From: Actinomycetota bacterium
Lineage (GTDB): Bacteria > Actinomycetota > Actinomycetes > Streptosporangiales > Streptosporangiaceae
Assembly: GCA_019240215.1 (NCBI GenBank)
Contig: JAFAYQ010000063.1
Coordinates: forward strand, 1-64,000
DNA length: 64,000 nucleotides
Reading direction: 5' to 3'
Positions 36,341 to 61,329 of this stretch are shown one piece after another. The notes below the pieces were generated by a model, which saw nothing but the letters and a program-made list of their open reading frames with translations, was not told where the DNA came from and made no database searches. Within the stretch, counting starts at the first letter, position 1, and the number at the start of each line of letters is the position of its first letter. A program made the position numbers and the translations under genes.

Positions 36341-39300
36341 GTGTTTACATCGTTCCGAGATCTGCGACGGGCCTTCGCGCTGACCGCCGCCGCCGTGTCG
36401 CTGTCGGCCGCCGGGCTCGCGGCCGTCGCCGCCCCGCCCGCGTCGGCGGCCGCCACCGGCGGCAGCGGCGCCAGCCTCCCCTACACCGAAGTCCAGGCCG
36501 AGAACTCGGCCACCAACGGCACCGTCATCGGCCCCAGCTACACCCAGGGTCAGCTGGCCGACGAGGCCTCCGGCCGCAAGGCGGTGACCCTGCAGGGCAG
36601 CGGCAGCGGCCAGTACGTCACGTTCACCTCACCGGTCGCGACCAACTCGATCGACTTCCGCTACAGCATCCCCGACAGCTCCGACGGCTCGGTCTACACC
36701 GCCCCGCTGTCGCTCTACGTCAACGGCACCAAGCAGGCCGACTTCACGCTGACCAACGCCTACAGCTGGTACTACGGCAGCTACCCGTTCACCAACACCC
36801 CCGGCAGCGGCCAGCACCACTTCTACGACGAGGTGCACCGGCTGTTCTCGACCACCTATCCGGCCGGTACCACGTTCAAGCTGGCGGTCGACTCCGAAGA
36901 CACCGCGTCCTCCTACACGATCGACTTCGCCGACTTCGAGCAGGTCGGGGCGGCCCTGAGCCAGCCCGCCGGGTCGGTCTCGGTGGTCAGCGAGGGGGCC
37001 GACGCCAGCGGGGCGGCCGACTCGACCAGCGCGTTCAACGCCGCGATCGCGGCGGCCGGGGCGGGCGGCACCGTGTGGATCCCGCCCGGCACCTACAACA
37101 TCCCCGGGCACATCGCGGTCAACAACGTGACGATCGCCGGCGCCGGCATGTGGTACTCGACGGTGACCGGGACCGCCCCGGGCTTCTACGGCAACTCGGC
37201 CCCGAACCCGAGCACCCACGTGCACCTGCAGAACTTCGCGATCTTCGGCAACGTCCAGGACCGTGACGACAGCGCCCAGGTCAACGGCATCGGCGGCGCG
37301 ATGAGCGATTCGACCGTGTCCAATATCTGGATCGAGCACATGAAGGTCGGGGCCTGGATGGACGGCCCGATGGACAGCCTGACGTTCAGCGGCATGCGCA
37401 TCCGCGACACCACCGCCGACGGCATCAACTTCCACGGCGGCGTCACCAACTCGACCGTGACCGGCAGCGACATCCGCAACACCGGGGACGACGGCATCGC
37501 GACCTGGGCCGACTCCAGCATTGGGGCGGACGCCAATGACACCATCTCCGACAACACCGTCCAGCTCCAGCAGCTGGCCAACGGCATCGCCATCTACGGC
37601 GGCCACGACAACACCGTCAGCGGCAACCTGGTGGTCGACACCGGCATCACCCAGGGCGGCGGCATCCAGGTCGGCCAGCGGTTCTCCTCGACCCCGGTCG
37701 GCACCACCACGATCACCGGCAACACCATGATCCGGGACGGCGACCTGGACCCGAACTGGCAGTTCGGGGTGGGCGCGCTGTGGTTCGACGGCAGCCAGGG
37801 CGCGGTCACCGGGCCGATCAACGTCAGCAACGACCTGATCGAGCAGAGCCCGTTCGAGGCCATCCAGTGGGTCGAGGGCACGATCAGCGGGGTCAACCTC
37901 AGCAACGTCACCATCAACGGCACCGGCACGTTCGCGCTGCAGGAGCAGACCGGCGGCGCCGCCACCATGACCAACGTCACCGCGACCAACGTGGCCCAGG
38001 CCAACGCGGGCAACCCGCCCAGCTACAGCTGTGAGGGCAGCAGCTTCACCCTCACCGACGACGGCGGCAACTCCGGCGTCACCCCGACCCAGTGCAACGG
38101 CTGGCCGGCCCCGGTCTACCCGCCGTACCCGGGCTCGGGCGGCGGCACCGGGAGCGGCAGCGCCACCCTGACCGCGTCGCCGGCCTCGGTCGCGTTCGGC
38201 AGCGAGGCGGCCGGCTCGACCAGCGCGGCCCAGAAAGTCACGGTGACCAACACCGGCAGCGCCGCCGCGGCCGTCTCCTCGATCAGCGCCGGGGCGCCGT
38301 TCGCCCAGACCAACACCTGCGGCTCGTCGATCGCGGCGGGCGCCTCGTGCACGGTCAGCGTGACGTTCACCCCGACCGCGGCCGGTGCGGCCTCGGCCAG
38401 CCTCACCGTGGCCAGCAACGCCACCAACGCATCGCTGACCGTCCCGCTGACCGGGACCGGCACCAGCAGCGGCGGTGGCGGCACCGCCACCAACCTGGCC
38501 CTGAACGCCTCCATCACCGCGTCCAGCTCCACCCAGAACTACGTGCCCGCCAACGCGGTCGACGGCAACACCAGCACCTACTGGGAGGGCACCAACGGCG
38601 TCTGGCCGACCACGCTGACCGTCAACCTGGGCGCCACCGACGCGCTGACCAAGGTGGTCATCGACCTGCCACCCGCCTCAGCCTGGAACACCCGCACCCA
38701 GACGCTGTCGGTGCTCGGCTCGACCGACGGCTCGAACTACAGCACGCTGGTCGGCTCGGCCACCTACACCTTCGACCCGTCGACCGGTAACACGGTGACG
38801 ATCCCGCTGGCCGCCGGCACCAGCGCCCAGTACGTCCGGCTGTCGTTCACCGCCAACAGCGTCCAGAACGGCGCCCAGGCCTCGGAGTTCCAGGTCTGGG
38901 GAACGGCCGGGTCCAGCGGCTCCGGGTCCGGCCACCCCGACCTGGCGCTCAACGCCGCCGTCACCGCGTCCAGCTACACCCAGAGCTACGTCCCCGCCAA
39001 CGCGGTCGACGGCAACACCAGTACCTACTGGGAGGGCACCAACGGCGCCTGGCCCACCACCTTCACCGCCAACCTGGGCGCCAGCAAGTCCCTGGGCTCG
39101 ATCGTGCTCGACCTGCCGCCCTCGTCGGCCTGGGGTACTCGCACCCAGACCCTGTCGGTGCTCGGCTCCGCCAACGGCTCCAGCTACTCCACGCTGGCCG
39201 GCTCGGCCACCTACACCTTCAACCCGTCGACCGGTAACACGGTGACGATCCCGCTGCCGTCCGGCACCAGCGACCAGTACGTGCAGCTGTCGTTCACCGC

Positions 39301-39355
39301 CAACAGCGTCCAGAACGGCGCCCAGATCTCCGAACTGGACGTCTACGGACCCTGA
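36341..39355 (+). CDS. Secreted GH87-type alpha-1,3-glucanase (mycodextranase-like)
   Basis: This 1004-aa exported enzyme has, in order: a signal peptide (about 1-30, ending PPASAAA), a CBM6/35-like module (about 40-185), a right-handed beta-helix (about 190-585), a choice-of-anchor/ASH-like beta domain (about 595-700) and two CBM32/discoidin modules (about 715-855 and 860-1004, very similar in DNA). The helix contains NTGDDGIATWAD (D383, D384) and LANGIAIYGGHDNTVSGN, the hallmarks I recognise from GH87 alpha-1,3-glucanases, which attack fungal alpha-1,3-glucan or nigeran. GTG 36341 follows AAAGGGG at 9-10 nt and is preferred to TTG 36314. A pectate-lyase-like specificity is the alternative. 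Confidence 0.8.
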   Translation: MFTSFRDLRRAFALTAAAVSLSAAGLAAVAAPPASAAATGGSGASLPYTEVQAENSATNGTVIGPSYTQGQLADEASGRKAVTLQGSGSGQYVTFTSPVATNSIDFRYSIPDSSDGSVYTAPLSLYVNGTKQADFTLTNAYSWYYGSYPFTNTPGSGQHHFYDEVHRLFSTTYPAGTTFKLAVDSEDTASSYTIDFADFEQVGAALSQPAGSVSVVSEGADASGAADSTSAFNAAIAAAGAGGTVWIPPGTYNIPGHIAVNNVTIAGAGMWYSTVTGTAPGFYGNSAPNPSTHVHLQNFAIFGNVQDRDDSAQVNGIGGAMSDSTVSNIWIEHMKVGAWMDGPMDSLTFSGMRIRDTTADGINFHGGVTNSTVTGSDIRNTGDDGIATWADSSIGADANDTISDNTVQLQQLANGIAIYGGHDNTVSGNLVVDTGITQGGGIQVGQRFSSTPVGTTTITGNTMIRDGDLDPNWQFGVGALWFDGSQGAVTGPINVSNDLIEQSPFEAIQWVEGTISGVNLSNVTINGTGTFALQEQTGGAATMTNVTATNVAQANAGNPPSYSCEGSSFTLTDDGGNSGVTPTQCNGWPAPVYPPYPGSGGGTGSGSATLTASPASVAFGSEAAGSTSAAQKVTVTNTGSAAAAVSSISAGAPFAQTNTCGSSIAAGASCTVSVTFTPTAAGAASASLTVASNATNASLTVPLTGTGTSSGGGGTATNLALNASITASSSTQNYVPANAVDGNTSTYWEGTNGVWPTTLTVNLGATDALTKVVIDLPPASAWNTRTQTLSVLGSTDGSNYSTLVGSATYTFDPSTGNTVTIPLAAGTSAQYVRLSFTANSVQNGAQASEFQVWGTAGSSGSGSGHPDLALNAAVTASSYTQSYVPANAVDGNTSTYWEGTNGAWPTTFTANLGASKSLGSIVLDLPPSSAWGTRTQTLSVLGSANGSSYSTLAGSATYTFNPSTGNTVTIPLPSGTSDQYVQLSFTANSVQNGAQISELDVYGP
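38500..39350 (+). repeat. Tandem CBM32 module duplication in the GH87 gene
   Basis: The two C-terminal discoidin modules share long near-identical DNA blocks (for example around 38540-38590 versus 38990-39040), consistent with recent duplication. They differ in sequence from the CBM32 pair in the GH16 gene. Confidence 0.75.
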
Positions 39356-39380
39356 CCAGCTGATCAACCGGTAAGAGCAA

Positions 39381-39410
39381 GGGCGGGCCGGGTATGCACC
39401 CGGCCCGCCC
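39381..39410. terminator. Bidirectional hairpin terminator
   Basis: A perfect 13-bp stem (GGGCGGGCCGGGT at 39381-39393, complement 39398-39410) with a 4-nt loop separates the convergent GH87 and TetR genes. Confidence 0.88.
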
Positions 39411-39413
39411 TGG

Positions 39414-40070
39414 TCAGCGCCTGAGCAGGGCGGCGATCAGGTTCTGTTCCATCCAGCCCCGGAACTCCTCCAGCCGGTAGCCGAGCCGGTGGACGAGCAG
39501 GTCGTAGCTTTCCGGGCTCGCGATCGCCCAGGCCGTGTCGGCCGCCCGCTTGCTGGTGAGACCCTCGGTCAGCGTGCTGACGGGAATGTCGGCCAGCACC
39601 CGGGTGATGAGCTGGTGCCGCAGCAGCTGGAGCTCGTTCCAGTCGGCCGCGATCTCGGGGTCGACGGCGGCCGCGTCCCGGTAGAGGCGCCAGCCGGTGG
39701 CGGCCCGTTCGGCGATCTCGGTGACCAGCGTGGCCAGTTCCGTGAGCCGCTCGCGGGGGGACAGGCCCGCGAAGCGCCGGGCGGCGTCCTCGGGTGAGCC
39801 GTCGCCGCCGGCCAGGGCGTTTTCCATGTAGCCGCGCAGCAGGGCCCGCTTGCTGCCCCAGGCCAGGTACAGCGTCTGGACGGAGACGCCGGCGGCGGCC
39901 GCCAGCCGGGTCACGGTCGTCCCCGCGTAACCGTGGGCCGGGAACTCTTCCCCGGCGGCTTGCAGCAGACGGTTCCGGGTGTCCTGCCGCAGCATCTCGC
40001 CGACCTTCTTCTGGCGGCTCGGGTGGCTGGACGCATCCGGCTGAACCGCAGCCCGCTGAGAAGTGCTCAT
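39414..40070 (-). CDS. TetR-family transcriptional regulator
   Basis: This ~218-aa repressor has the N-terminal HTH TRNRLLQAAGEEFPAHGYAGTTVTRLAAAAGVSVQTLYLAWGSKRALL, followed by a helical ligand domain. ATG 40070 has TTAGGA 9-10 nt upstream and is preferred to ATG 40079 or 40088. It is divergent from the CocE-type hydrolase; the inverted repeat at 40096-40114 is its likely operator. Confidence 0.9.
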   Translation of the reverse strand: MSTSQRAAVQPDASSHPSRQKKVGEMLRQDTRNRLLQAAGEEFPAHGYAGTTVTRLAAAAGVSVQTLYLAWGSKRALLRGYMENALAGGDGSPEDAARRFAGLSPRERLTELATLVTEIAERAATGWRLYRDAAAVDPEIAADWNELQLLRHQLITRVLADIPVSTLTEGLTSKRAADTAWAIASPESYDLLVHRLGYRLEEFRGWMEQNLIAALLRR

Positions 40071-40095
40071 GGACAACATCCTAACCATGCTTTAG

Positions 40096-40114
40096 AGTGC
40101 CAATCAAATGCACT
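40096..40114. promoter_or_regulatory. Inverted repeat between TetR and CocE genes
   Basis: AGTGC-N9-GCACT lies in an AT-rich 77-bp divergent spacer, in a position to block both promoters. It is the probable TetR operator. Confidence 0.5.
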
Positions 40115-40147
40115 TGAACGTCACTCAAAACCATGAAGGGCAAGATC

Positions 40148-41848
40148 ATGAACAGCGTCACCCTCGACCGTCCCTGGCACCGTCCCGGCCGCTTCGCCTA
40201 CGCGCGGAAACGCATTCCAGCGGCGCTGCGCCCGCCGGTCACCGTCTATCCGATGCCGTCCGAGGTCACCAAGGACGAGGACGTGCCGGTGCGGATGAGC
40301 GACGGGGTCACGCTGCGGCTGAACCTGTTCCGCCCGGCCGGCGACGGGCCGTTCCCGGTGCTGATGTCGGCCCACCCGTACGGCAAGGACAAGGTGCCGA
40401 CGATGAAGCGGGGCCGCTGGTCGCTGAACCCGCAGTTCCGGATCATGAACCAGCCCGCGCCGCTGCGGATCTCGGACCAGACCAGCTGGGAAGCGCCCGA
40501 CCCGGTCTGGTGGGCCCAGCAGGGGTACGCGGTGATCAACCTGGACACCCGCGGCGGCGGCCACTCCGAGGGGCGCGGCGATCTGCTGTCCGATCAGGAA
40601 GCCGACGATCTCGCCCAGGTGATCGCCTGGGCGGCCGAGCAGCCGTGGTCGACCGGCCGGGTCGGCCTGCTCGGGGTGTCCTACCTCGCGCTCTCGCAGT
40701 ACAAGGTGGCCGCCCTGAACCCGCCCGCGCTGAAGGCGATCTGCCCGTGGGAAGGGTTCACCGACGCCTACCGCGACTTCTTCACCCCCGGCGGCGTCAC
40801 CGAGAACGGCTTCGCCCGGGTATGGCTGTTCCTGACCAGCCGCGTCGCCCGCCTCAACACCAACCTGGCCGCCGAACGCCGCCGCCACCCGCTGCGCGAC
40901 GCCTGGTGGGAGGCCCTCACCCCTGAACTGTCGAAGATCAGGGTCCCGATCCTGGAGTGCACCAGCTTCTCCGACGACAACCTGCACAGCGTCGGGTCGA
41001 TGCGCGCCTTCCAGCAGGCCGGCTCGGACGACCGGCACGCCTACGCGCACCGGGGGCCGAAGTGGGCGACCTTTTACGGCGAGGAAGCACGCCGCACCCA
41101 GCTGGCGTTCTTCGACCGGCACCTGCGCGGCCGGGACGCCGCCCCGCTGCCGCGCCTGCGGCTGGAGGTCCGGGACCGGCGCGACCACATCGTCGAGGTC
41201 CGGGACGAGCAGGAGTGGCCGCTGGCGCGCACCGACTGGCGTCAGCTGCACCTCGCCGCCGGCGGCACTTTGACCGAACACCAGGCTGGCGACGGCCGCG
41301 TCAGCTTCGACCTGCGGCGCAACGCGGCCGCCTTCGACCACCGCTTCACCGAGGACACCGAGCTCAGCGGCCCGATGACCCTCCGGCTGCAGGTGGCCAC
41401 CACCGGCGCCAGCGACCCGCGGCTCTTCGTCGGCGTCGAGAAGTGGTCAGCTGGCACCCCGGTCCCCTTCAACGGCTCCTACGGGTACGGCCGCGATCGC
41501 GTCGCCCAGGGCCGGCTGCGTCTCGCCCTGCGCGAGCTCGATCCCGAGCTCAGCGCCCCCCACCAGCCCGAGCACACGTTCCGGACGCTCCAGCCGGTTC
41601 ACGACGGCGAGCAGGTCGAGGTCCTGATCCCGCTCAGCTCCTCGGCCACGCTGTTCCGGGCGGGCGACCGGCTGCGGCTGATGGTGGCGGGCCGGTACCT
41701 GCAGCCCCGCAACCCCTTCTTCGGCCACTTCCCCACCCACTACGAGCCCAGCGGCCGAGGCCAGGCCACCATCAGCTGGAGCCCGGGCCACCCGTCCAGC
41801 CTGGAGATCCCGGTCATCCCCAGGGGCGCCAGCCCGAGCCCGTGCTAG
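40148..41848 (+). CDS. CocE/NonD-family hydrolase (S15 peptidase-like)
   Basis: This ~566-aa alpha/beta-hydrolase of the CocE/X-Pro dipeptidyl-peptidase class has the N-terminal DVPVRMSDGVTLRLNLFRP and VINLDTRGGGHSEG, the nucleophile elbow LLGVSYLALSQY (Ser178), and a C-terminal jelly-roll domain (FRTLQPVHDGEQVEVLIPLSSSATLFRAGDRLRLMVAG). It may hydrolyse esters or amides of small molecules; the substrate is unknown. GAAGGG favours ATG 40148 over ATG 40133. It is controlled by the divergent TetR gene. Its TAG stop shares CTAG with the stop of the convergent small gene. Confidence 0.88.
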   Translation: MNSVTLDRPWHRPGRFAYARKRIPAALRPPVTVYPMPSEVTKDEDVPVRMSDGVTLRLNLFRPAGDGPFPVLMSAHPYGKDKVPTMKRGRWSLNPQFRIMNQPAPLRISDQTSWEAPDPVWWAQQGYAVINLDTRGGGHSEGRGDLLSDQEADDLAQVIAWAAEQPWSTGRVGLLGVSYLALSQYKVAALNPPALKAICPWEGFTDAYRDFFTPGGVTENGFARVWLFLTSRVARLNTNLAAERRRHPLRDAWWEALTPELSKIRVPILECTSFSDDNLHSVGSMRAFQQAGSDDRHAYAHRGPKWATFYGEEARRTQLAFFDRHLRGRDAAPLPRLRLEVRDRRDHIVEVRDEQEWPLARTDWRQLHLAAGGTLTEHQAGDGRVSFDLRRNAAAFDHRFTEDTELSGPMTLRLQVATTGASDPRLFVGVEKWSAGTPVPFNGSYGYGRDRVAQGRLRLALRELDPELSAPHQPEHTFRTLQPVHDGEQVEVLIPLSSSATLFRAGDRLRLMVAGRYLQPRNPFFGHFPTHYEPSGRGQATISWSPGHPSSLEIPVIPRGASPSPC

Positions 41849-42318
41849 GCCGGCACCAGGGCCGGATAGCGGGCCTCGACCGCGCCGATCACGGCCAGGC
41901 ACTCGGCGAAGAAGTAGATGGTCTTGAAGAACTCCAGCAGGTTGCCCTCTTCGAGCAGGATCTTGCGGTACATGACCGTGCGCTGGGCGTCGTAGCCGTC
42001 GTGCAGGGCCTTCCAGTCGGCGTAGTCCATGGCCAGCACGTAGGTCGCCGCCAGCGGCTCGTCCGGCCCGATGATCCGGCAATCGGCCACCGTGCCGCCC
42101 GCCCACTGGACGAACAGGTAGGCCGGGCCGCCGCCCAGTTCGGCGGGCAGCTCACGGCAGCCGAGCGCCCAGGATGCCGGGTACACGCTCTTGATCGTCT
42201 CGAACAGGTCCCAGTACTCCTGCAGCTTGCCCGCTCGGACCTGGTCGGATGGGCCGGCGTCGAGCGCGTCCCGGACCACGGCCGCCCACCCGGAACTGAA
42301 GAAGTTCGTCTCGGTCAT
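41845..42318 (-). CDS. Small protein, possible SCP2-like partner of the diiron oxidase
   Basis: This 157-aa soluble protein is of unknown function. It starts 2 nt after the stop of the R2lox-like gene, so translation is tightly coupled. The C-terminal half (AATYVLAMDYADWKALHDGYDAQRTVMYRKI, then LEEGNLLEFFKTIYFFAECL) resembles an SCP2/lipid-binding fold, in which a strand, a Trp and a Gly-turn precede helices that line a hydrophobic tunnel. This is inferred from pattern only. The context suggests it presents a hydrophobic substrate or protects the diiron protein. Confidence 0.55.
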   Translation of the reverse strand: MTETNFFSSGWAAVVRDALDAGPSDQVRAGKLQEYWDLFETIKSVYPASWALGCRELPAELGGGPAYLFVQWAGGTVADCRIIGPDEPLAATYVLAMDYADWKALHDGYDAQRTVMYRKILLEEGNLLEFFKTIYFFAECLAVIGAVEARYPALVPA

Positions 42319-42320
42319 GG

Positions 42321-43325
42321 TCAGCCACCGGCCAGCACGGGCTGGACCTTGGTCAGCAGCTCCTCGAGGTCCGGCGACAGGCTGATACCGACGTCGTTGA
42401 GCTTGCGCCGCAGCTGCTGGAAGAACAGGATCCGCACTTCGTCCTGGGTCCAGCCGAGCGGCTCGTAGTAGATCTGGCGGCTGTTCACCCCGGACGTGTA
42501 GAGGATCGTCCGTAGCGTGTCGTGAATCTCGTTGATCATCGACGGGTCCTTCCGGACCGCATCCTGGAGGTACTTCATGCCCCCCTGGACGTGCCGCGAC
42601 TCGTCCCGGCAGGTGGCGGTGAAGCCGGTGTAGTAGGCGGGCAGGAAGCCGCGCCAGCGGGCGTAGGACAGCGTCACCTTCATGACCGACAGGGCCAGCA
42701 CGCCCTCGATCCAGAGGAAGTAGGTGGTGCCGTAGCGGACCCGGGCGCGCTCGTCGTAGGGGTGCCGGCGCAGTTCGTCGGCCTGGTAGGCCAGCAGCCC
42801 GAACGGCCCCACGAACGTCTCCGACACCCACGGGAACGAGGCGTCGAGGATGTCCATGATGTCGTCACCCTTGAGGCCGACGACCTCACGGTAGAACCGG
42901 TCGAAAAACACCGTGTGCCGGGCCTCGTCCTCGATCTGGGCCGCGATGTGCAGCTTTTCTTCCTCGCTGGCGCCGATCATGAATACCGGCAGCTCGATCT
43001 CGACCTGGCGCTCGCCGTGGTGGAAGCCGGAGGCGATGGCCATGAACGACTGGCGTTCGTCCTCGGTCATCTTTTCCTGCCAGTCGATCACGTCCTGGCT
43101 GAAGTCCAGGTCGTAGACGTCCCACCGCTGCTTGAGGTACTTGCGGTACAGGGTGGTGAAGTCGGGCAACGCCTTGAGGTCCTTGTGCACGTACTCGATG
43201 ACGTCGTCGATGTCGACCTTGAGCACGTCGGCCAGGTTCGACTCCTCGATCTCGCGGACCTGGGCGTCGCTCAGCGCGCGCGGGCCCTCGTGCAGCACCG
43301 CGGTCGGGCTCGGGCGATCAGTCAT
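42321..43325 (-). CDS. R2-like diiron protein (R2lox-type ligand-binding oxidase)
   Basis: This 334-aa ferritin-fold protein is related to the ribonucleotide reductase R2 subunit. Metal ligands can be placed at E105 (HHGERQVE), E134-x-x-H137 (EDEARHTVFF), E207 (LWIEGVLAL) and E242-x-x-H245 (RDESRHVQ). The position of the radical Tyr of R2 (His+4) is Phe141, and no NrdA large subunit is nearby. Both facts favour an R2lox-type oxidase over a nucleotide reductase. R2lox proteins bind long-chain ligands near a Mn/Fe centre. ATG 43325 is preceded by GGGAGG. Third gene of the leftward operon hydrolase, cupin, diiron, small protein. Confidence 0.8.
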   Translation of the reverse strand: MTDRPSPTAVLHEGPRALSDAQVREIEESNLADVLKVDIDDVIEYVHKDLKALPDFTTLYRKYLKQRWDVYDLDFSQDVIDWQEKMTEDERQSFMAIASGFHHGERQVEIELPVFMIGASEEEKLHIAAQIEDEARHTVFFDRFYREVVGLKGDDIMDILDASFPWVSETFVGPFGLLAYQADELRRHPYDERARVRYGTTYFLWIEGVLALSVMKVTLSYARWRGFLPAYYTGFTATCRDESRHVQGGMKYLQDAVRKDPSMINEIHDTLRTILYTSGVNSRQIYYEPLGWTQDEVRILFFQQLRRKLNDVGISLSPDLEELLTKVQPVLAGG

Positions 43326-43427
43326 CGTGGTCGGCCTCCCAGTTAATAGAACGGGATTCGGTTTCCAGGACACCGGTAAACCGCCCGCCCTGTCAAGGCC
43401 GCCAGCGGGGTGGCCGGACCGCCCGCT

Positions 43428-43988
43428 TCAGTCCTGGGCGTCTGACCAGTCGAAGTCCGGCCGGAACTCCATATCGTGATTCTGAGCGGCCGCTTGCATC
43501 CGCGGAAATTCCGGGATGAAAGGCGGCTGGCCGACGTCGCCGTGGTCGGACGGCTGCCCCATCTCAGCGAAAAATCGCTCGAAGCCGCCGGTGGCCACGC
43601 CCAGCACCTGGCTTGGCGCTTCCACCTGGTAGGCGTGCACCAGCCCGGCCGGCACGAACCCGAAGTCACCGGCGGTCAGCCGCTGGGCCCGCTTGGTCCC
43701 GTCCTGGTCGGCCACGTAGACCCGGACGGTCCCGTCCACCACGTAGAACACCTCGTGGGTGCCGTGGTGGTTGTGGGCCGGGATCAGCTGCCCGGCCGGC
43801 GCCTGCATGGTGAACACCCCGAACTGCCCGCCGGTCTCATCCCCGGACAGCAGCACCGTGAACAGGTCGGTGAACAGCATCGCGTGCTCACCGTCCCCCT
43901 TTTTGAGGAAAAAGGGGGCCGGGCGACCGGGCAGCAACCCCTGCCAGCGGGGCCCGTGGCTGGGGTCGGTGAGGTACTCGAAGCTCAT
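43428..43988 (-). CDS. Cupin protein (quercetin 2,3-dioxygenase-like)
   Basis: This 186-aa single-domain cupin has metal motif 1 as PAHNHHGTHEVFYVVDGTV (three His and a Glu) and motif 2 as GDFGFVPAGLVHAYQ. Members include flavonol dioxygenases and sensors. An FFLKKGDGEHAMLF segment near the N-terminus is typical of the quercetinase-like group. It begins 9 nt after the hydrolase stop and lies ~100 nt before the diiron gene, so all four genes probably form one operon. It may be a dioxygenase acting with the diiron oxidase; the substrate is unknown. Confidence 0.85.
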   Translation of the reverse strand: MSFEYLTDPSHGPRWQGLLPGRPAPFFLKKGDGEHAMLFTDLFTVLLSGDETGGQFGVFTMQAPAGQLIPAHNHHGTHEVFYVVDGTVRVYVADQDGTKRAQRLTAGDFGFVPAGLVHAYQVEAPSQVLGVATGGFERFFAEMGQPSDHGDVGQPPFIPEFPRMQAAAQNHDMEFRPDFDWSDAQD

Positions 43989-43997
43989 GCTGGCACC

Positions 43998-44738
43998 CTA
44001 CGGCCTGGCCGCCCGCGCGGCCCGGGTCCGGGCCAGCAGGTCGCGGACGGCGCCGGCCACCAGCTCGGGGGTCTCGTAGACCGGGGTGTGCCCGGCGTCG
44101 GCCAGCCGGAACTCGGCGTCGGGGAGCGCCACCGCCAGCTCGCGGCCCTGCTCCGGCGGCCGGGCCCGGTCGTGGCGGCCGTGCACCACGATGGCGGGCT
44201 GGTGGAGGCCGGCCAGCCGGCCGGTCAGGTCGAGGTCACGCTGGCTGGCCAGCACGTCGTAGACCGCGCGCGGGTCGCAGGCCAGCGCCCAGCGCAGGTA
44301 GCGGGCCCGGACGGCCGGGTCCAGCGGCCGCTGGAACGACCGGTCGAGCACCGCCGCCACCAGCTCCTCACCCCAGCTGATACGAATCCGTTCCAGGATC
44401 GCGCCCACGTCGCCGTGCCCCTGCATGTGGGCTCCGGTGTCCACCAGCAGCAGACCCGTCACGGTGCCGGGGTGGCTCACCGCCAGCTGCAGCGCGATGG
44501 CGCCGCCGGTCGAGTGCCCGGCGACCAGCACCGGCCCGCCCCCGCGTTCTTCGATGCGCCGGGCCACCCGGGCGGCGACCGCCGGGATGTCCCACGGCCC
44601 GGGCTCGGTCAGCCAGGACACCGGGTCCACGGTGACCTGGCCGGCCAGCGCCGCCGCCAGCGGCTCGAACACGGCCGGGGTGCACAGCGTCCCGGGCAGC
44701 GCGACCAGGACCGGGGCCGCGGCCGGTTCGGGGTTCAT
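43998..44738 (-). CDS. Alpha/beta-fold hydrolase
   Basis: This 246-aa soluble hydrolase has the nucleophile elbow VAGHSTGGAIALQ (Ser76), acid in VVHGRHDRARPPEQG and His in LADAGHTPVYETPE, so it has a full Ser-Asp-His triad of the esterase/BphD/lactonase class. First gene of the putative leftward operon with cupin, diiron protein and small protein, where it could cleave a ring-opened or ester product. Confidence 0.87.
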   Translation of the reverse strand: MNPEPAAAPVLVALPGTLCTPAVFEPLAAALAGQVTVDPVSWLTEPGPWDIPAVAARVARRIEERGGGPVLVAGHSTGGAIALQLAVSHPGTVTGLLLVDTGAHMQGHGDVGAILERIRISWGEELVAAVLDRSFQRPLDPAVRARYLRWALACDPRAVYDVLASQRDLDLTGRLAGLHQPAIVVHGRHDRARPPEQGRELAVALPDAEFRLADAGHTPVYETPELVAGAVRDLLARTRAARAARP

Positions 44739-45130
44739 GCCGGGACCCTAACGCGCCCGCCCCGGCGCCGTCGCGCACCCGGCCCCGGCCCCCGCCCAGC
44801 GCGCACGACCCGCCCCACCTCCTCCGCAACCGATTGTGGAGCAATCTGCGCGAACGGACATACAAGGGCCAGAGGCGGGTACCGCCGAACAGAGGCCGCC
44901 GGGCTGACCAGCACTTCCGGACCGGGCGAGCCGCAGGGTCCTGAAGTGCAATAACTACGCGTCCAATTGCATCCAGTTGCCGGTTATGCGTTATTAAATT
45001 ATCTCAATAAAGATATTCCATTGTGACTTGATCTTGATATAGGATTGGCACACAATCACGCAGGAACCGGCGCTTTCCACCACAATCCGGCGCGTTGGGG
45101 CCTGCAACGTCCTCCGGCTAAGGAGATTGC
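44739..45130. other. Divergent promoter region with strongly AT-rich stretch
   Basis: No gene is seen. Bases about 44950-45060 are unusually AT-rich for this genome and contain TAGGAT, a plausible -10 element for the eqolisin gene. AAGGAG at 45120-45125 is its RBS. The left part (44739-44940) is GC-rich. Confidence 0.55.
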
Positions 45131-46003
45131 ATGACCTCCCGCTGGCGCGTCCTGAGCGCGCGCACCGTTGTTCCCTGGAGAGTTTCCCTCGCCGTCGGCG
45201 CCTTAATACTGGGTTCCTTCGGGGCGGCCGTCGGCACCGCGGGCGCGGCTGGCGCCGCCACCACCGCCACCCACCCCGGCACCACGCATACCCGTCCCGG
45301 CGGGTCGGTCGGCGGGTACCAGCCCGGCGGCCTGATCAAGGCGCACAAATCCGGGGCCACCCCGGATGCCGCCCAGGGCGTCAAGAACGACAGCAGCACC
45401 AGCACCAACTGGTCGGGCTACGTCGTGACCGGCGGCACCGGCGCCTTCAACAGCGTGTCGTCGAGCTGGACCGAACCCGCGGCCAGCTGCGGTAGCGGTA
45501 CCCAGTACGCCGCGTTCTGGGTGGGCCTGGACGGCTACAACAGCGACTCCGTGGAACAGACCGGCACCGACTCCGACTGCAGCAACGGGTCGCCGGACTA
45601 CTACGGCTGGTATGAGATGTACCCGGCCGACCCGGTCTACTTCACCAACCCGGTCTCGCCCGGGGACAGCATGAGCGCCTCGGTCGCGGTCAGCGGGACC
45701 AGCTACACGCTGACGCTGACCGACAGCACCCAGGGCTGGACCCAGACCGAGAACGAGACCGGAAGCTATTCCAACTCCTCCGCGGAAGTCATCACCGAGG
45801 CGCCGTCGTCCTCCACCGGACCGCTGCCGCTGGCTGACTTCGGCACCGTCAACTACTCGGCTGCATCCGCCAACGGGACCTCCATGAGCTCCCAGAACCC
45901 GACCTCGATCACGATGGTCGGCAGTAGCGGTGACCAGCTGGACTCCACCAGTGCCATCGATGGATCCGGTGATTTCAGCAATACCTGGGACGCCTCGAGC
46001 TGA
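45131..46003 (+). CDS. Secreted glutamic peptidase (eqolisin, family G1)
   Basis: This 290-aa exported acid protease is of the G1 family. After a signal peptide (cleavage near residue 40) and a Gly/His-rich propeptide, the jelly-roll domain begins at STNWSGYVVTGG. The catalytic Gln is Q143 (SVEQTGTD) and the catalytic Glu is in AEVITEAPSS (E219 or E223); PDYYGWYEMYPADPVYF is the conserved substrate loop. AAGGAG 5 nt before ATG 45131 is a strong RBS. Codon 25 is TTA (45203-45205), rare in this genome, so translation may depend on a developmental Leu-tRNA of the bldA type. The protein likely degrades extracellular protein at acid pH. Confidence 0.87.
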   Translation: MTSRWRVLSARTVVPWRVSLAVGALILGSFGAAVGTAGAAGAATTATHPGTTHTRPGGSVGGYQPGGLIKAHKSGATPDAAQGVKNDSSTSTNWSGYVVTGGTGAFNSVSSSWTEPAASCGSGTQYAAFWVGLDGYNSDSVEQTGTDSDCSNGSPDYYGWYEMYPADPVYFTNPVSPGDSMSASVAVSGTSYTLTLTDSTQGWTQTENETGSYSNSSAEVITEAPSSSTGPLPLADFGTVNYSAASANGTSMSSQNPTSITMVGSSGDQLDSTSAIDGSGDFSNTWDASS

Positions 46004-46034
46004 TCGTTCGCGGCTCCCGCCGCCTCGCCGCTGG

Positions 46035-46062
46035 CCCCCGGGGGATTGATGACCTCCGGGGG
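46035..46062. terminator. Possible terminator after the eqolisin gene
   Basis: A 7-bp stem (CCCCCGG at 46035-46041, CCGGGGG at 46056-46062) lies 32 nt after the eqolisin stop and before the convergent phosphatase remnant. Confidence 0.4.
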
Positions 46063-46085
46063 TCAGCGCGGTCAGGGCTGGGTGG

Positions 46086-46546
46086 TCAGGGCCGGTGCTG
46101 TCCGGGGGCGCCGTCCCGGCTGAGCTGGCCGGCGATCAGTTCCAGCGAACGCCACAGTTCGAGCGCGGGCATGGCCTGGGGCCGGGCGGCCCGGACCTGG
46201 CGGCGGGCGGCGTTGAGCGAGTGGCCGCGCACCAGCAGGTAGGCGATGGCGACGGCCGAGGTGCGGGAGATGCCGGCCTGGCAGTAGATGCCGGTGGTGA
46301 CGCCGGCCGCGGCCTGGGCGGCGACGTGGCGGGCGGCCGCCAGGATCAGGTCCTCCTGGCCGCCTTCGAGATCCATGATCGGGAAATGGTCGATCGGGAT
46401 CGGCAGGCCGGGCGGCCGGGTCTCACCGCGCAGTCGACCAGGCGCTCGGCCCCGGCCTAAATCATGTGCATGGCCAGCCCGGCGTCGGCCAGCAGCACGT
46501 GGTCGTCGAGCCGGCTGACGCCGACCACCTTAAGCTCGAAGGTCAT
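46086..46546 (-). pseudogene. Dual-specificity phosphatase-like remnant
   Basis: Reading leftward from ATG 46546, the frame gives [19 protein letters not shown] and then stops at TAG after HMI. Homologous-looking sequence resumes (AGAERLVDCA), then a frameshift leads into a 96-codon frame (46086-46376) containing YCQAGISRTSAVAIAYLL, a Cys-x5-Arg phosphatase loop whose preceding His is Tyr. Two lesions make it a probable pseudogene, although the last 96-codon frame might still be translated. Its ATG overlaps the stop of the MaoC remnant (ATGA), showing the two were once an operon. Confidence 0.65.
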
Positions 46547-47050
46547 GGGCCGACGTCCGCGCCCGGACGGACCTGGATCCGGCCGCGGTCGATGACCACG
46601 GTGCCGTCCGGCTTGGCCGTCTGGAACCGTCAGCGCCTCGCCCGGCAGTACCGGCCGGACATGGCCTGGAAGCGGCCGGGTCTGAGCCGCACAGCGCGTG
46701 CAGCAGCGCCCGCCCGGTCACCCCGTAGGTGCACAAGCCGGGCAGGATCGGCCGGCTGAACCCGCCGCGGGCGGCGAACTTGGGGTCCACGTGCAGCGGG
46801 TTGCGGTCGCCGGACAGCCGGTAGATCAGCGCCTGCTACGCGGTGGCCTCGCCTGCGCGATCAGCACCGCGAACGTCGGCAGCACCTGCTGCTCGATCCC
46901 CTGGCCGTTCTCGGTGGTGAACTCCAGCTCCTGCAGCGGATCACCCAGCCCGGCCCCCACCCCGACCGCGTACAGCAGCGCGTCCTTGCTGTCCCAGGAC
47001 CGTTCGTGGGGTTCGCTCGGTACGCCGGCCAAGCTGTGGTCCAGGCTCAT
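46543..47050 (-). pseudogene. MaoC-type enoyl-CoA hydratase remnant
   Basis: The intact 5' part (MSLDHSLAGVPSEPHERSW, then DALLYAVGVGAGLGDPL and VLPTFAVLIAQ) is the N-terminal hot-dog of a MaoC-like (R)-enoyl-CoA hydratase of fatty-acid or steroid side-chain breakdown. The frame then breaks. About 100 residues are missing, and the sequence resumes with [20 protein letters not shown] (hydratase motif) and [16 protein letters not shown]. At least two further frameshifts precede the end [10 protein letters not shown]. The promoter at 47083-47108 still carries the shared TAGAA-N5-TTCTA operator. Confidence 0.8.
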
Positions 47051-47082
47051 GGCACCCCTCCACCGCGGCCGGGCTCTTTAGC

Positions 47083-47108
47083 TAGAATCCATTTCTAGAA
47101 ATAATTCT
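47083..47108. promoter_or_regulatory. TAGAA-N5-TTCTA operator at the MaoC promoter
   Basis: TAGAATCCATTTCTA (47083-47097) is a perfect inverted repeat, with a further half-site to 47108. On the minus strand TTGACA lies 17 nt upstream of CAGAAT, so the operator overlaps the -10 region. The same motif recurs at 47568, 53193, 56565, 56669, 56682 and 61351. Confidence 0.75.
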
Positions 47109-47582
47109 GTTGGGTGGGGTTGAGAGTGTCAAGGGTGGCGGGTCTGCCGGGGGCGTGACGGGATGAGGCCAGCCCGGGCCGTGTGTGCACTTCGCATGCC
47201 TCTCCAGCTCTCCAGTCGCTGGAGTAACAGACCCGGTCTCGCTGGAGCGAAGTCGGCGATTATCGCCGGTTTCGCTCCAGCGAGGTCGCGAGCTCGTTTC
47301 CGATGCGCGGGACTCTCAGGGCTGATGTGATTCGAGGGTCTGGTGGTGGCGAGACAACAGTGGCCGCCCCCGCCAGGGCCTCGCCGGGTCCGGCGGGGGC
47401 CTCCACCGGATCCGCCGTCGCCCACCCGTCACCGGCGCCCGAACGGGCCGGCTGGCCGCCGCTCACCCGTCCGGGGCCCCCGGGCGGCCCGGTCAGCCGT
47501 CGGCGCCTCACCCCCTACGGGCACCCGGGCGGCTTGACAGCACCCGGCCCGCACGATCAAATGATCCTAGAATCTGCTTCTA
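47109..47582. other. Gene-free remnant between two operators
   Basis: No supported gene lies here. It is bounded by a TAGAA-N5-TTCTA site on each side and probably marks where a gene was lost. It also contains an inverted repeat GATCA-AA-TGATC near 47556 and a TTGACA box near 47534. GC-rich open frames on both strands have no family likeness. Confidence 0.5.
47568..47582. promoter_or_regulatory. Orphan TAGAA-N5-TTCTA operator
   Basis: TAGAATCTGCTTCTA is a perfect 5-5-5 inverted repeat sitting next to the 3' end of the endonuclease gene, with no functional gene to control. It supports loss of a regulon member here. Confidence 0.65.
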
Positions 47583-48194
47583 CTATTGACCGGCCGGCGG
47601 GAGATGGGTATGGGCGGCGTCCTGGAATCTATTTTCAAAGCGTTCGGCGTGCAGTGTGTTCTCGCGGAGAATCGCGATCTCTATCGTCGCCGGATATGCG
47701 GATTCATCGCGGTAGAGCAGGTGCCCGAAATAAAAAGCGCCAGGGGTGGCGGCCGCTTCCCGTTCCAGGGCCCGGTATCGCTTACCCTCCGCTGACCAGC
47801 CTCGGTTCAACGCCCGGTCCTGGCGGAAGATATTCGGCCCGAATTCTCCGCCGGACAGATGCGGGATGAGATGCCCCCGATCGACGGCGAGGCTGTCCGG
47901 TTCGGCAGCAAGCGGATAACCGCGCTGATAAGAGACGTCCCGGCTGGCCACGGTCGCGGGGGTAACGGCCCAGGCTGCTACCGTGCGGTCCTCTTGCCCG
48001 GCGTCTACGGCGCTTGCCTGATCGAACAGGTACGTCGCGCCCGACTGGGGGAATCGCAGCAGCAAACTGTCCGGGCATGTGGACGCATAGTGGGCCGCCG
48101 CCGCGTCCAGGAGCACCCGCCCTGCCGTTGCTGGATCGATCGGCCGGCTGAGTGCCGCGGCCAGGCCCGCAAAGTCGATCGACAGTCCGGTCAT
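47583..48194 (-). CDS. DNA/RNA non-specific endonuclease-like protein
   Basis: This 203-aa protein has the beta-beta-alpha-metal nuclease pattern: DRGHLIPHLSGGEFG (catalytic His and neighbouring residues, DRGH type), then NIFRQDRALNRGWSAEGKRYRALEREAA (metal-binding Asn/Gln-Asn block). There is no signal peptide; the N-terminal ~90 residues are not recognised. It could be a cytoplasmic nuclease, or a toxin domain lacking a delivery part. No immunity gene is obvious. The start ATG 48194 follows GGGAG. GC and codon use are slightly lower than its neighbours. Confidence 0.65.
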   Translation of the reverse strand: MTGLSIDFAGLAAALSRPIDPATAGRVLLDAAAAHYASTCPDSLLLRFPQSGATYLFDQASAVDAGQEDRTVAAWAVTPATVASRDVSYQRGYPLAAEPDSLAVDRGHLIPHLSGGEFGPNIFRQDRALNRGWSAEGKRYRALEREAAATPGAFYFGHLLYRDESAYPATIEIAILRENTLHAERFENRFQDAAHTHLPPAGQ

Positions 48195-48249
48195 GGTCTC
48201 TTCTTACTCCCTGGCGGGTGGCCACTTGTTCGACGGGTCAGGGATCGGC

Positions 48250-49023: not shown

Positions 49024-49046
49024 ACGATCACCTTTTCAGAAAGAAT

Positions 49047-49121
49047 GTTGGCTGAACCAACGTTGGTAGTACCAACATATTTTGAAAAGGCTGGATTGTC
49101 CAGGACGTTGGGCTAACCAAC
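49047..49121. promoter_or_regulatory. Three GTTGG-N5-CCAAC operators between SDR and MarR
   Basis: GTTGG-CTGAA-CCAAC (49047-49061), GTTGG-TAGTA-CCAAC (49062-49076, a perfect 15-bp palindrome) and GTTGG-GCTAA-CCAAC (49107-49121) occupy the 113-bp divergent spacer. The first two are directly adjacent. Spacing and identity indicate a MarR binding array governing both genes. Confidence 0.85.
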
Positions 49122-49136
49122 GGTTAGGATGGCCGA

Positions 49137-56984: not shown

Positions 56985-57869
56985 ATGACGCGACTGAGCG
57001 GTCGGGTCGCCATCGTGACCGGGGCTGGCCGGGGGATCGGCCAGTCGGCAGCCAAGCTGCTGGCCAGCGAGGGCGCCGCGGTGGTGGTCAACGACCTCGG
57101 GGTGGCGATGGACGGTTCCGGTAACGACACCGGGCCCGCCCACGACACGGTGGCCGCGATCACCGAGGCGGGCGGCAAGGCCGTCGCCAACGGCGCCGAC
57201 ATCTCCGACCACGCCGCCGCCGAGGACCTGATCAAGACCGCGATCGAGCAGTTCGGGCGGCTCGACGTGCTGGTCAACGTGGCCGGCATCCTGCGCGACC
57301 GGATGGTGTTCAACATGACCGAGCAGGAGTGGGACGACGTCATCCGGGTCCACCTCAAGGGGACGTTCAACACCACCAAGTTCGCGTCCGCGCACTGGCG
57401 GTCGCTGCGCGACGAGACCGCCCAGAACCGGATCATCAACTTCACCTCGGTCTCCGGCCTGCACGGGGCGCCCGGGCAGCCCAACTACGCGGCGGCCAAG
57501 ATGGGCATCGTCGGGCTGACCTACTCGGCCGCCAACTCCCTGGCCAAGTACGGCGTCACCGTCAACGCGATCTCGCCCGGCGCCGCCACCCGGATGACCG
57601 ACTCGGTGCCGGCCGACCGCCGCCGGGCCCAGACCAGGACCGACGACGAGCGATCGCCGGACAACGTGGCCCCGATCGTCGCCTACCTGGCCTCCGAGCG
57701 CTCGGGCTGGATCACCGGCCGGATCATCCACTCCAGCGGCTACGAGGTCTCGCTCTACAACAACCCGGAGCCGATCGTCCGGCTGCTGAACTCCGGTCCC
57801 TGGGAGGCCGACGCGCTGGCCGCTCAGGTCGAGCGGGCGTTCGGGCCGCCGCTGGGCCGCAAGCCCTAA
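56985..57869 (+). CDS. SDR-family 3-hydroxyacyl-CoA/steroid dehydrogenase-like
   Basis: This 294-aa SDR of the MFE-2/17-beta-HSD4 subgroup has VAIVTGAGRGIGQSAAKLLASEGAAVVVND, NVAGILRDRMVFNMTEQEWDDVIRVHLKGTF, the catalytic Ser in INFTSVSG, and Tyr/Lys in PNYAAAKMG. It ends with an extension (SGYEVSLYNNPEPIVRLL) seen in this subgroup. It probably oxidises a 3-hydroxyacyl-CoA in fatty-acid or steroid side-chain breakdown. It is divergent from TetR A and controlled by the double operator. The RBS is AAGGAG, 13 nt from ATG. Confidence 0.92.
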   Translation: MTRLSGRVAIVTGAGRGIGQSAAKLLASEGAAVVVNDLGVAMDGSGNDTGPAHDTVAAITEAGGKAVANGADISDHAAAEDLIKTAIEQFGRLDVLVNVAGILRDRMVFNMTEQEWDDVIRVHLKGTFNTTKFASAHWRSLRDETAQNRIINFTSVSGLHGAPGQPNYAAAKMGIVGLTYSAANSLAKYGVTVNAISPGAATRMTDSVPADRRRAQTRTDDERSPDNVAPIVAYLASERSGWITGRIIHSSGYEVSLYNNPEPIVRLLNSGPWEADALAAQVERAFGPPLGRKP

Positions 57870-59755: not shown

Positions 59756-60904
59756 CTAGCGCGGCTGGCGGCCGAGGACCAGCACGCCGGCGGTGGCGAA
59801 CATCCCGCCGTTGCCGAGCACCACGCTGATCTGCGGGTCGCCGATCTGGGCGGCGGCCTCGCCGCGGATCTGGCGGACCCCCTCCTGGATCGCGAACATG
59901 CCGTACATGCCGGTGTGGGTGTAGGAGAGGCCGCCGCCGTTGGTGTTCAGCGGCAGCCGCCCGCCCGGCTCGGTGTTGCCGTCGGCGATGAACGCGCCCG
60001 CCTCGCCCTTCTTCACGAAGCCGAGCGCCTCCAGGCCGTAGATCGGCACGTGCGCGAAGGCGTCGTAGATCATCAGGTGGTCGACGTCACCGGTGCTGAT
60101 GCCGGCCTCGGCGAATGCGGTCTGGCCGGCCAGCCGGAACGCCTGCGACTCGGTGAAGTCGGCCATCTGCGAGATCATCGGCGTCTCCGAGCGCTCGCCG
60201 GTGCCGAGGATGTGCACCGGCGGCTTGGGGAAGCCGCCCGCCCGGTCGGCCGACGTCACCACCAAGGCGCCGCCGCCGTCGGTGACCAGGCAGCACTCCA
60301 GCAGGTGGAACGGGTAGGCGACCATCCGCGAGGCGAGCACGTCGTCGACCGTGATCGGGTCGCGGAACGCCGCCCGCGGGTTCTTGGCCGCCCACTGGCG
60401 CTGGGCGACGGCCACGTAGGCCAGCTGCTCGTGGGTCAGCCCGTAGTCCTTCATGTAGCGCAGGGCGGGGATGGTGAAGGTGGTGGTGGGCCCGAACGTG
60501 CCGTAGGGCGCCTCGAACTGGCCGGGCGGGGAGGTGGGAGCGGCCCGGAACGGCACCGCGCCGACCCGGGAGCGGCCGGACTCGCCGTGCGTGATCAGGA
60601 TGGTCTTGGCGTAGCCGGCCCGGATGGCGGCGACCGCGTGCCGGACGTGCAGCAGGAACGAGGTGCCGCCGACGCCGGTGCCGTCGATCCAGTCCGGCAT
60701 GATGCCGAGCGCGTGCGCGACCTGGACCGGCCCGGGGGCGGCGACGGTGGCGATGCCGTCGATGTCGCGCAGGGTCAGGCCCGCGTCGGCCACCGCGTTG
60801 AGCGCGCCCTCGATGTGCAGCTCCAGGGTGGACTGGCCAGGCAGTCTGCCGATCTGGTCGGTCTCGGCCGCGCCCGCGATGATGACGCCGGTCTCGCTGC
60901 TCAT
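59756..60904 (-). CDS. Thiolase-fold protein, Ltp2-like aldolase or lipid-transfer type
   Basis: This 382-aa thiolase-superfamily protein of the SCP-x/Ltp2 class lacks the SCP2 tail. The nucleophilic Cys position of true thiolases reads GTGVGGTSFLLHVRHAV, with no Cys, and the C-terminal motifs are MIYDAFAHVPIYGLEALGF and NTNGGGLSYTHTGMYGM. Ltp2 relatives use Tyr residues as acid/base to cleave steroid side chains by retro-aldol reaction together with a DUF35 partner, which is the overlapping gene here (ATGA overlap at 60901-60904). An aldolase is therefore more likely than a thiolase. ATG 60904 is preferred to the longer frame. Confidence 0.82.
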   Translation of the reverse strand: MSSETGVIIAGAAETDQIGRLPGQSTLELHIEGALNAVADAGLTLRDIDGIATVAAPGPVQVAHALGIMPDWIDGTGVGGTSFLLHVRHAVAAIRAGYAKTILITHGESGRSRVGAVPFRAAPTSPPGQFEAPYGTFGPTTTFTIPALRYMKDYGLTHEQLAYVAVAQRQWAAKNPRAAFRDPITVDDVLASRMVAYPFHLLECCLVTDGGGALVVTSADRAGGFPKPPVHILGTGERSETPMISQMADFTESQAFRLAGQTAFAEAGISTGDVDHLMIYDAFAHVPIYGLEALGFVKKGEAGAFIADGNTEPGGRLPLNTNGGGLSYTHTGMYGMFAIQEGVRQIRGEAAAQIGDPQISVVLGNGGMFATAGVLVLGRQPR

Positions 60905-61329
60905 CGGTTCGCCTCCGTGGCGGCGCTGCCAGAGGGCTTGAACAGGGGCAGGCTGACGTCGCCGCGCGGCTCGAACGTGACCTCGAGCGGCATGTCCAGC
61001 ACCAGCGCCTCGGGGGTGGCCGGCAGCCCGCTCAGGCTGGTCATCATCCGCGGGCCCTCTTCGAGCTGGACGACCGCGATCGCGTAGGGGCCGTCGTCGG
61101 CGAAGCCGGGGGCCGGCCGGTGGTTGATCACGTAGGAGTAGAGCGTGGCCCGGCCGCTGGCCGTGAACCACTCGACGTTGCGCGAACCGCAGTCCGGGCA
61201 CACCGGCCGCGGATAGAAGTAGGGCTTGCCGCAATCGGTGCACCGCTGCAGACGCAGCTCGTCGGCGGCGCAGCCGTCCCAGAACGGCTGGGTCTCCGGA
61301 GTCGGCACCGGAACCGCCTTGTCCGCCAC
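60901..61329 (-). CDS. DUF35 zinc-ribbon OB-fold protein, partner of the aldolase
   Basis: This 142-aa protein has a rubredoxin-like zinc ribbon (CTDCGKPYFYPRPVCPDCGS) followed by an OB-fold (SGRATLYSYVINHRPAPGFADDGPYAIAVVQLEEGPRMM). DUF35 proteins form the CoA-binding side of Ltp2- and thiolase-like complexes. GTG 61329 has GAGGTGA upstream and is preferred to ATG 61347, because the operator (61351-61365) is immediately beyond. First gene of the leftward two-gene operon. Confidence 0.88.
   Translation of the reverse strand: MADKAVPVPTPETQPFWDGCAADELRLQRCTDCGKPYFYPRPVCPDCGSRNVEWFTASGRATLYSYVINHRPAPGFADDGPYAIAVVQLEEGPRMMTSLSGLPATPEALVLDMPLEVTFEPRGDVSLPLFKPSGSAATEANR

What the first reader, a model, noticed from the sequence alone, without database searches (positions are those of the whole stretch)
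41845..44738. Operon joining an R2lox-like diiron protein, cupin, alpha/beta-hydrolase and SCP2-like protein
Four co-directional genes with gaps of 9, ~100 and 2 nt encode a hydrolase with full triad, a quercetinase-like cupin, a ferritin-fold protein with six metal ligands but Phe at the radical-Tyr position and no NrdA nearby, and a small protein with an SCP2-like pattern. I know of no described pathway with this set. It could oxidise, then cleave, a hydrophobic substrate delivered by the small protein.
Basis: partly seen in the sequence, partly recalled or inferred. Interest (0 to 1): 0.65.

Follow-up and report, generated by a model that had tools for sequence, protein, structure and literature searches.

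The report
Oxidase gene paired with lipid-carrier gene
Two neighbouring genes, one for an oxygen-using metal enzyme of the R2lox type whose natural job is still debated and one for a small lipid-carrying protein, stay together across unrelated bacteria and in some are even fused into one protein, which suggests that the carrier hands greasy molecules to the enzyme; the two other genes of the reported operon are chance neighbours.

Summary
The four-gene order is not a unit: in 60 other loci neither the cupin nor the hydrolase lies beside the diiron gene.

What is conserved is the last pair. An SCP2-fold gene directly follows the diiron gene in every locus where the following DNA is held (Streptosporangiaceae, Pseudonocardia, Mycolicibacterium, Streptomyces, Neobacillus, an Acidobacteriota MAG, a Spirochaetaceae MAG). 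The two proteins co-diverge (Mantel r 0.90).

The diiron protein keeps all six metal ligands, the R2lox cross-link Val and Tyr, and Phe at the radical-Tyr site. It belongs to a clade sister to canonical R2lox, with its own FHHGERQV motif and Met where R2lox has Tyr175. In related clades, R2lox-like proteins carry a C-terminal SCP2 domain (12 proteins, Pfam). Canonical R2lox genes on Rhodococcus and Mycobacterium plasmids share operons with SCP2, alcohol dehydrogenase and acyl-CoA ligase genes.

Best explanation: an O2-activating dimetal lipid oxidase served by a dedicated SCP2 carrier. The carrier link is well supported. Substrate, reaction and metal identity are inferred. I found no paper describing the R2lox-SCP2 link. 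Verdict: new variant of a known kind.

The parts
42321..43325 (-). R2lox-like dimetal oxidase gene (334 aa); core of the conserved pair
   Evidence: Pfam Ribonuc_red_sm 49.6 bits; best PDB sequence matches are R2lox proteins; AlphaFold pLDDT 90, Foldseek top hits R2lox; ligand and cross-link residues invariant
41845..42318 (-). SCP2-fold small protein gene (157 aa); starts 2 nt after the oxidase stop; second member of the conserved pair
   Evidence: profile vs 2cx7 E 5e-11; 12 of 38 family members hit Pfam SCP2; AlphaFold pLDDT 95.9 and Foldseek 2cx7 E 1.8e-8; follows the oxidase in 56 of 60 loci, the other 4 explained
43002..43025 (-). Codons 101-108, FHHGERQV: first ligand Glu105 and cross-link Val108; His102-His103 are diagnostic of the paired clade
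   Evidence: HH in 18 of 18 paired rows; no canonical R2lox row has His at either position; E105 and V108 invariant in paired, fused and canonical R2lox groups
42705..42722 (-). Codons 202-207, YFLWIE: cross-link Tyr202 and ligand Glu207
   Evidence: invariant in paired, fused and canonical R2lox groups; Phe at the Tyr position in the two NrdB/F rows
43326..43427 (-). 102-nt gap upstream of the pair, with TTGACA and a block similar to the same-genus locus that has a different upstream gene; possible promoter of the pair
   Evidence: pairwise alignment window vs L035; no sigma-70 match was scored here by the scan
43428..43988 (-). QueD-like cupin gene (186 aa); local neighbour, not part of the conserved unit
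   Evidence: 5fli/QueD E 2e-44; absent beside the pair in all other loci
43998..44738 (-). PcaD-like alpha/beta-hydrolase gene (246 aa); local neighbour, not part of the conserved unit
   Evidence: NCBIfam PcaD-type matches below cut-off; absent beside the pair in all other loci
59756..61329 (-). Thiolase (59756-60904) and DUF35-type subunit (60901-61329); same families recur near the pair in other genera, functional link here unproven
   Evidence: 86% and 74% identical to genes of the compact L160 cluster, which holds a canonical-clade R2lox
56985..57869 (+). SDR dehydrogenase of the family that recurs near the pair in other genera

Best explanation
The functional unit is a two-gene cassette: an R2lox-like dimetal (Fe/Fe or Mn/Fe) oxidase with a dedicated SCP2-fold lipid carrier. 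Proposed mechanism: the carrier holds a hydrophobic or acyl-type substrate in its tunnel and delivers it to the ligand channel of the oxidase. The reduced dimetal site activates O2 and carries out a two-electron C-H oxidation (hydroxylation or desaturation). Electrons would come from a ferredoxin/reductase, which some relatives encode next door. The product would enter acyl-CoA (beta-oxidation-type) metabolism. Shown here: the obligate pairing, the fusions, the SCP2 fold, the conserved ligand and cross-link residues, the absence of NrdA. Inferred: carrier delivery, substrate class, reaction type, metal identity, electron source.
For: (1) SCP2-type gene directly 3' of the oxidase in 56 of 60 loci; of the other four, two contigs end before it could lie (L122, L123), one ends 46 nt after the stop (L080), and L116 carries a separate oxidase+SCP2 pair nearby. 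Intergenic distance -4 to +20 nt. Of 814 genes in these loci, all 54 SCP2-type hits are pair partners. Protein distances correlate, Mantel r 0.90, 0 of 2000 permutations. (2) Natural fusions: 12 R2lox-like proteins of about 420-490 aa group as fused; all nine scanned with Pfam pass the cut-offs for both Ribonuc_red_sm and SCP2. (3) Canonical R2lox genes on plasmids share operons with SCP2: Rhodococcus pROB01 (ADH, R2lox, FAD reductase, ferredoxin, ALDH, SCP2, acyl-CoA ligase), pRB11, M. intracellulare pMyong1 (R2lox, SCP2-like, ligase, ADH). (4) Active site: six ligands, Val/Tyr cross-link pair, Ala at the channel-opening position, Phe instead of radical Tyr. (5) Contexts: Rieske ferredoxin and FAD reductase beside the pair in Microbacterium and relatives; SDR, TetR, ACAD, thiolase, DUF35, MaoC orthologues recurring across genera. 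(6) Literature: canonical R2lox binds fatty acids (PMC6399176) and GkR2loxI is reported as an alkane monooxygenase in an ADH/ALDH/ligase/beta-oxidation cluster (PMC10867098).
Against: No biochemistry exists for this clade. Tyr175, which lines the R2lox cavity, is Met here, so the chemistry may differ. 20 chromosomal canonical R2lox loci have no SCP2 nearby, so SCP2 is not needed by all R2lox. Raw counts of acyl-CoA gene families among near neighbours are not higher than among far neighbours; only MFS transporters are (12 of 110 vs 2 of 84). No reductase gene is adjacent in the window. The alkane claim for GkR2loxI rests largely on crude lysates.
Confidence: 0.6

Rival explanations
1. The SCP2-like protein is a regulatory or structural component (like MmoB of methane monooxygenase, or an assembly factor), not a substrate carrier; the oxidase takes its substrate by itself.
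For: Strict adjacency and co-divergence also fit an obligate subunit. Canonical R2lox can bind fatty acids without SCP2 (PMC6399176), and 20 chromosomal R2lox loci lack SCP2.
Against: SCP2 domains are generally lipid binders (established knowledge). SCP2 domains of two divergent types (the paired form and the fused or plasmid-operon form) are associated with R2lox-like proteins in separate lineages, which fits a shared lipid role better than a single recruited subunit.
Confidence: 0.2
2. Four-gene pathway: the oxidase oxidises and the cupin and hydrolase cleave a hydrophobic substrate.
For: Co-directional genes with short gaps in this genome.
Against: Neither gene is beside the pair in any of the other loci, including the same-genus genome. 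Cupin relatives sit with another hydrolase type without the oxidase. The pair has similar upstream sequence in the same-genus genome despite a different upstream gene.
Confidence: 0.05
3. The diiron protein is a divergent ribonucleotide reductase R2 subunit.
For: Pfam Ribonuc_red_sm match; public annotation often calls such proteins RNR beta.
Against: Phe at the radical-Tyr site, the R2lox Tyr/Val pair present, Ala instead of the channel-blocking Phe; no NrdA in 61 loci; the tree separates it from NrdB/F with full support. A class Ic-type R2 also lacks the Tyr, but no R1 partner is present.
Confidence: 0.03
4. The pair serves biosynthesis rather than catabolism, modifying a carrier-bound acyl or aromatic intermediate of a secondary metabolite or membrane lipid.
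For: Streptomyces ipomoeae locus L107 has two AMP-ligases, ACAD, an acyl carrier-like protein and an FAD halogenase around the pair. Distant R2-like relatives lie in NRPS-type and similar clusters on Streptomyces plasmids.
Against: Most loci are not in such clusters; plasmid R2lox-SCP2 operons look catabolic.
Confidence: 0.12

Closest known systems
[quoted passage not shown] tuberculosis Rv0233, G. kaustophilus GK2771, S. erythraea 7qbp)
   Same: Fold, six ligands, Val/Tyr cross-link pair, Phe at the radical-Tyr position, Ala that opens the ligand channel
   Different: Separate sister clade; 91.6 bits against the R2lox NCBIfam cut-off of 194; FHHGERQV motif; Tyr175 replaced by Met; obligate SCP2 partner
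SCP2 / non-specific lipid transfer domain (PF02036; T. thermophilus 2cx7; UbiJ)
   Same: Fold and the lipid-binding segment
   Different: N-terminal helical extension with FFxxxWA motif; the window protein itself falls below Pfam detection; tied to one oxidase
GkR2loxI alkane monooxygenase cluster (PMC10867098)
   Same: R2lox-type oxidase within acyl-CoA and alcohol-oxidation genes
   Different: No SCP2 is mentioned there; canonical R2lox clade
Diiron CoA-ester oxygenases (PaaA, BoxB) and acyl-ACP desaturases
   Same: Ferritin-type dimetal oxidation of carrier-bound acyl groups (analogy from general knowledge)
   Different: Different families; no Pfam match to them above cut-off
QueD quercetinase (5fli), for the cupin only
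   Same: Sequence and metal ligands
   Different: Not functionally tied to the pair

Membership tests
R2lox (canonical) | Six carboxylate/His metal ligands | tested here: met
   E105, E134, H137, E207, E242, H245 invariant
R2lox (canonical) | Cross-link Val72 and Tyr162 | tested here: met
   V108 and Y202 in 18 of 18 paired rows; the bond itself was not testable
R2lox (canonical) | Small residue (Ala171) opening a ligand channel | tested here: met
   A211 in 18 of 18 paired rows; role from PMC4118035
R2lox (canonical) | Conserved Tyr175 lining the cavity | tested here: not met
   Met in 17 of 18 and Gln in 1 paired row; Tyr in 17 of 17 canonical R2lox rows
R2lox (canonical) | NCBIfam R2lox cut-off (NF006200, 194 bits) | tested here: not met
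   91.6 bits
R2lox (canonical) | Groups within the canonical clade | tested here: not met
   paired rows fall in a separate 47-row clade, SH-aLRT 99; paired group 100/100 in the careful tree
R2lox (canonical) | Mn/Fe cofactor and bound long-chain fatty acid | not testable with these tools
   needs purified protein
Ribonucleotide reductase R2 | Radical Tyr (classes Ia/Ib) and NrdA partner | tested here: not met
   Phe141; no NrdA in 61 loci
SCP2 domain family | SCP2 fold | tested here: met
SCP2 domain family | Pfam PF02036 match of the window protein itself | tested here: not met
   no hit; 12 of 38 family members match at E up to 1, best 4.9e-5; family profile hits 2cx7 at 5e-11
SCP2 domain family | Lipid binding | not testable with these tools
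   needs protein
QueD-type quercetinase (cupin) | 3-His/1-Glu metal site | tested here: met
   alignment to 5fli

The most novel reading that the evidence does not exclude
SCP2 domains are a recurrent partner (adjacent, fused or in the same operon) of R2lox-type oxidases, and R2lox-type enzymes work as lipid or hydrocarbon oxygenases that receive substrate from an SCP2 carrier. The window shows one clade in which this partnership is obligate.
Probability: 0.45. Interest if true: 0.8.

Novelty: new variant of a known kind. Interest (0 to 1): 0.62.

Why it matters
R2lox proteins have been studied structurally for over a decade, yet reviews state that their physiological function is unknown (PMC4118035, PMC6060897); one 2024 paper proposes alkane oxidation (PMC10867098). 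A lipid-carrier domain that is obligately paired with one R2lox-like clade and fused to others points at the substrate class. It also gives a ready experiment: purify the pair or a natural fusion, identify the lipid carried by the SCP2 part, and test it as substrate. An SCP2 carrier feeding a dimetal oxygenase would be a new arrangement among such oxygenases.

Tried and rejected
Viral contigs: no relatives. Rfam found nothing in 38000-50000. The promoter scan found no match in the 102-nt gap and only one promoter-like site in the whole stretch. Simple counts of acyl-CoA families near versus far from the pair gave no enrichment except for MFS transporters, so I rely on orthologue recurrence rather than counts. 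AibH2/SfbO Mn/Fe oxygenases (PMC10401708, PMC10811679) were considered as parallels and set aside: different fold. A single origin of the SCP2 fusion is not rejected (AU p 0.081), so I do not claim two independent fusions.
Full report
Observation. The four genes exist at the stated coordinates on the minus strand: hydrolase 44738-43998, cupin 43988-43428, diiron 43325-42321, small protein 42318-41845. Gaps are 9, 102 and 2 nt. The diiron protein matches Ribonuc_red_sm and, among solved structures, R2lox first. The cupin matches QueD at E 2e-44. The hydrolase is PcaD-like. The small protein has no direct Pfam or NCBIfam hit.

The four-gene order is not conserved. In the same GTDB family, 33 of 343 genomes hold the diiron gene. 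In the 33 relatives' regions read, no cupin or hydrolase homologue lies nearby, while the small gene follows the diiron gene wherever both are on the contig. In a scan of one genome per species (60 loci; Streptosporangiaceae, Pseudonocardia, Saccharopolyspora, Nonomuraea, Mycolicibacterium, Streptomyces ipomoeae, Microbacterium, Neobacillus, a Thermoanaerobaculia MAG, a Spirochaetaceae MAG; part of these are the same contigs as in the family search) the result is the same: 56 of 60 show the SCP2-like gene directly downstream. Of the other four, two contigs end at the diiron gene, one ends 46 nt after it, and L116 carries its own oxidase+SCP2 pair beside a second R2lox-type gene. Start-stop distances are -4 to +20 nt. 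Cupin relatives elsewhere sit beside a different alpha/beta-hydrolase and an IclR-type regulator, so the cupin and hydrolase look like a separate catabolic neighbour. In the same-genus locus the upstream gene differs but the sequence upstream of the pair is similar.

The small protein is an SCP2 fold. The family profile finds T. thermophilus SCP2 (2cx7) at E 5e-11; 12 of 38 members match Pfam SCP2; the AlphaFold model has pLDDT 95.9; Foldseek ranks SCP2 structures first.

The diiron protein is R2lox-like but separate. Foldseek ranks R2lox first, then class Ic R2. All six ligands, the cross-link Val and Tyr and the channel-opening Ala are invariant in the paired clade, and Phe replaces the radical Tyr. 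The paired clade has its own FHHGERQV motif, and Met replaces Tyr175, a residue conserved in R2lox (role in PMC4118035 and PMC6060897). A maximum-likelihood tree places it, with fused and other forms, in a clade (SH-aLRT 99) apart from canonical R2lox; the paired group has full support. No NrdA-like gene lies in its loci.

The oxidase-SCP2 link recurs. Twelve R2lox-like proteins of about 420-490 aa from other Actinomycetota group as fused; all nine tested pass Pfam cut-offs for both the R2 domain and a C-terminal SCP2 domain. The fused domain and the stand-alone SCP2-like protein align in profile comparison (probability 84%, E 8e-6). Canonical R2lox on Rhodococcus plasmids lies near NDMA-alcohol dehydrogenase, ferredoxin, FAD reductase, aldehyde dehydrogenase, SCP2 and acyl-CoA ligase genes (a third plasmid lacks the SCP2 part in the stretch read). 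On a Mycobacterium plasmid R2lox is followed by an SCP2-like gene, ligase and alcohol dehydrogenase. That SCP2-like protein scores just below the Pfam cut-off but is 60% identical to the Rhodococcus one, which passes it. In contrast, 20 chromosomal canonical R2lox loci had none. Of 814 genes in the paired loci, every SCP2-type hit is a pair partner. Oxidase and SCP2-like proteins co-diverge, Mantel r 0.90.

Context. Orthologues of an SDR, a TetR regulator, acyl-CoA dehydrogenase, thiolase, DUF35 subunit, MaoC hydratase and one MFS transporter subfamily recur near the pair in several unrelated genera, some in Bacillota too. Rieske ferredoxin and FAD reductase genes lie divergent to the pair in Microbacterium and a related MAG; another lineage has a reductase only. 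The window carries thiolase, DUF35, SDR and TetR relatives at 55.8-62.1 kb and a broken MaoC gene at 46.6-47.05 kb. They match a compact cluster in another genome (L160) that contains a canonical-clade R2lox. A plain count of acyl-CoA families near versus far from the pair showed no enrichment except for MFS transporters (12 of 110 vs 2 of 84), so the metabolic context is suggestive, not proven.

Mechanism. Best supported: the SCP2-like protein carries a hydrophobic or acyl substrate and delivers it to the R2lox-like dimetal site, which activates O2 for a two-electron C-H oxidation. Literature fits: canonical R2lox binds fatty acids (PMC6399176), may act as a desaturase (PMC4118035), and GkR2loxI is reported as an alkane monooxygenase in a cluster of alcohol and aldehyde dehydrogenases, ligase and beta-oxidation genes (PMC10867098). 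Delivery, substrate, reaction and metal are inferred. No paper found links R2lox with SCP2; the search covers open-licence PMC papers only, and a 2022 comparative R2lox paper was not held.

Noticed in passing
window 46567-47050 (-): Broken MaoC-type hydratase gene: residues 79-183 are missing relative to the L160 homologue and the tail has a stop.
   Followed up: partly
own genome G000:C17, locus L159 5157-5918: A 253-aa R2-like protein gene is coupled to genes that look like pqqB, pqqC, pqqD and pqqE and is followed by a dipeptidase-like gene; role unknown.
   Followed up: no
window 55794-62101: Thiolase, DUF35, SDR and two TetR genes related to a compact cluster in another Streptosporangiaceae genome (L160), where a canonical-clade R2lox sits beside the MaoC gene.
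   Followed up: partly
L166 and L167 (Streptomyces plasmids): Divergent R2-like proteins inside NRPS-type and other biosynthetic-looking clusters, without SCP2.
   Followed up: no
L238, L240-L243, L246, L248, L256-L266: Large unnamed radiation of R2lox-like proteins in other Actinomycetota, several per genome; one lineage lies beside genes resembling prfB, ftsE and ftsX (L256, L258, L260, L263).
   Followed up: partly
window 40133-41848 (+): CocE/NonD-type hydrolase gene converging on the SCP2-like gene with a 4-nt overlap of their ends; TetR gene divergent to it.
   Followed up: no
L107 (Streptomyces ipomoeae): The pair lies in a cluster with two AMP-ligases, ACAD, an acyl carrier-like protein and an FAD halogenase.
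   Followed up: no
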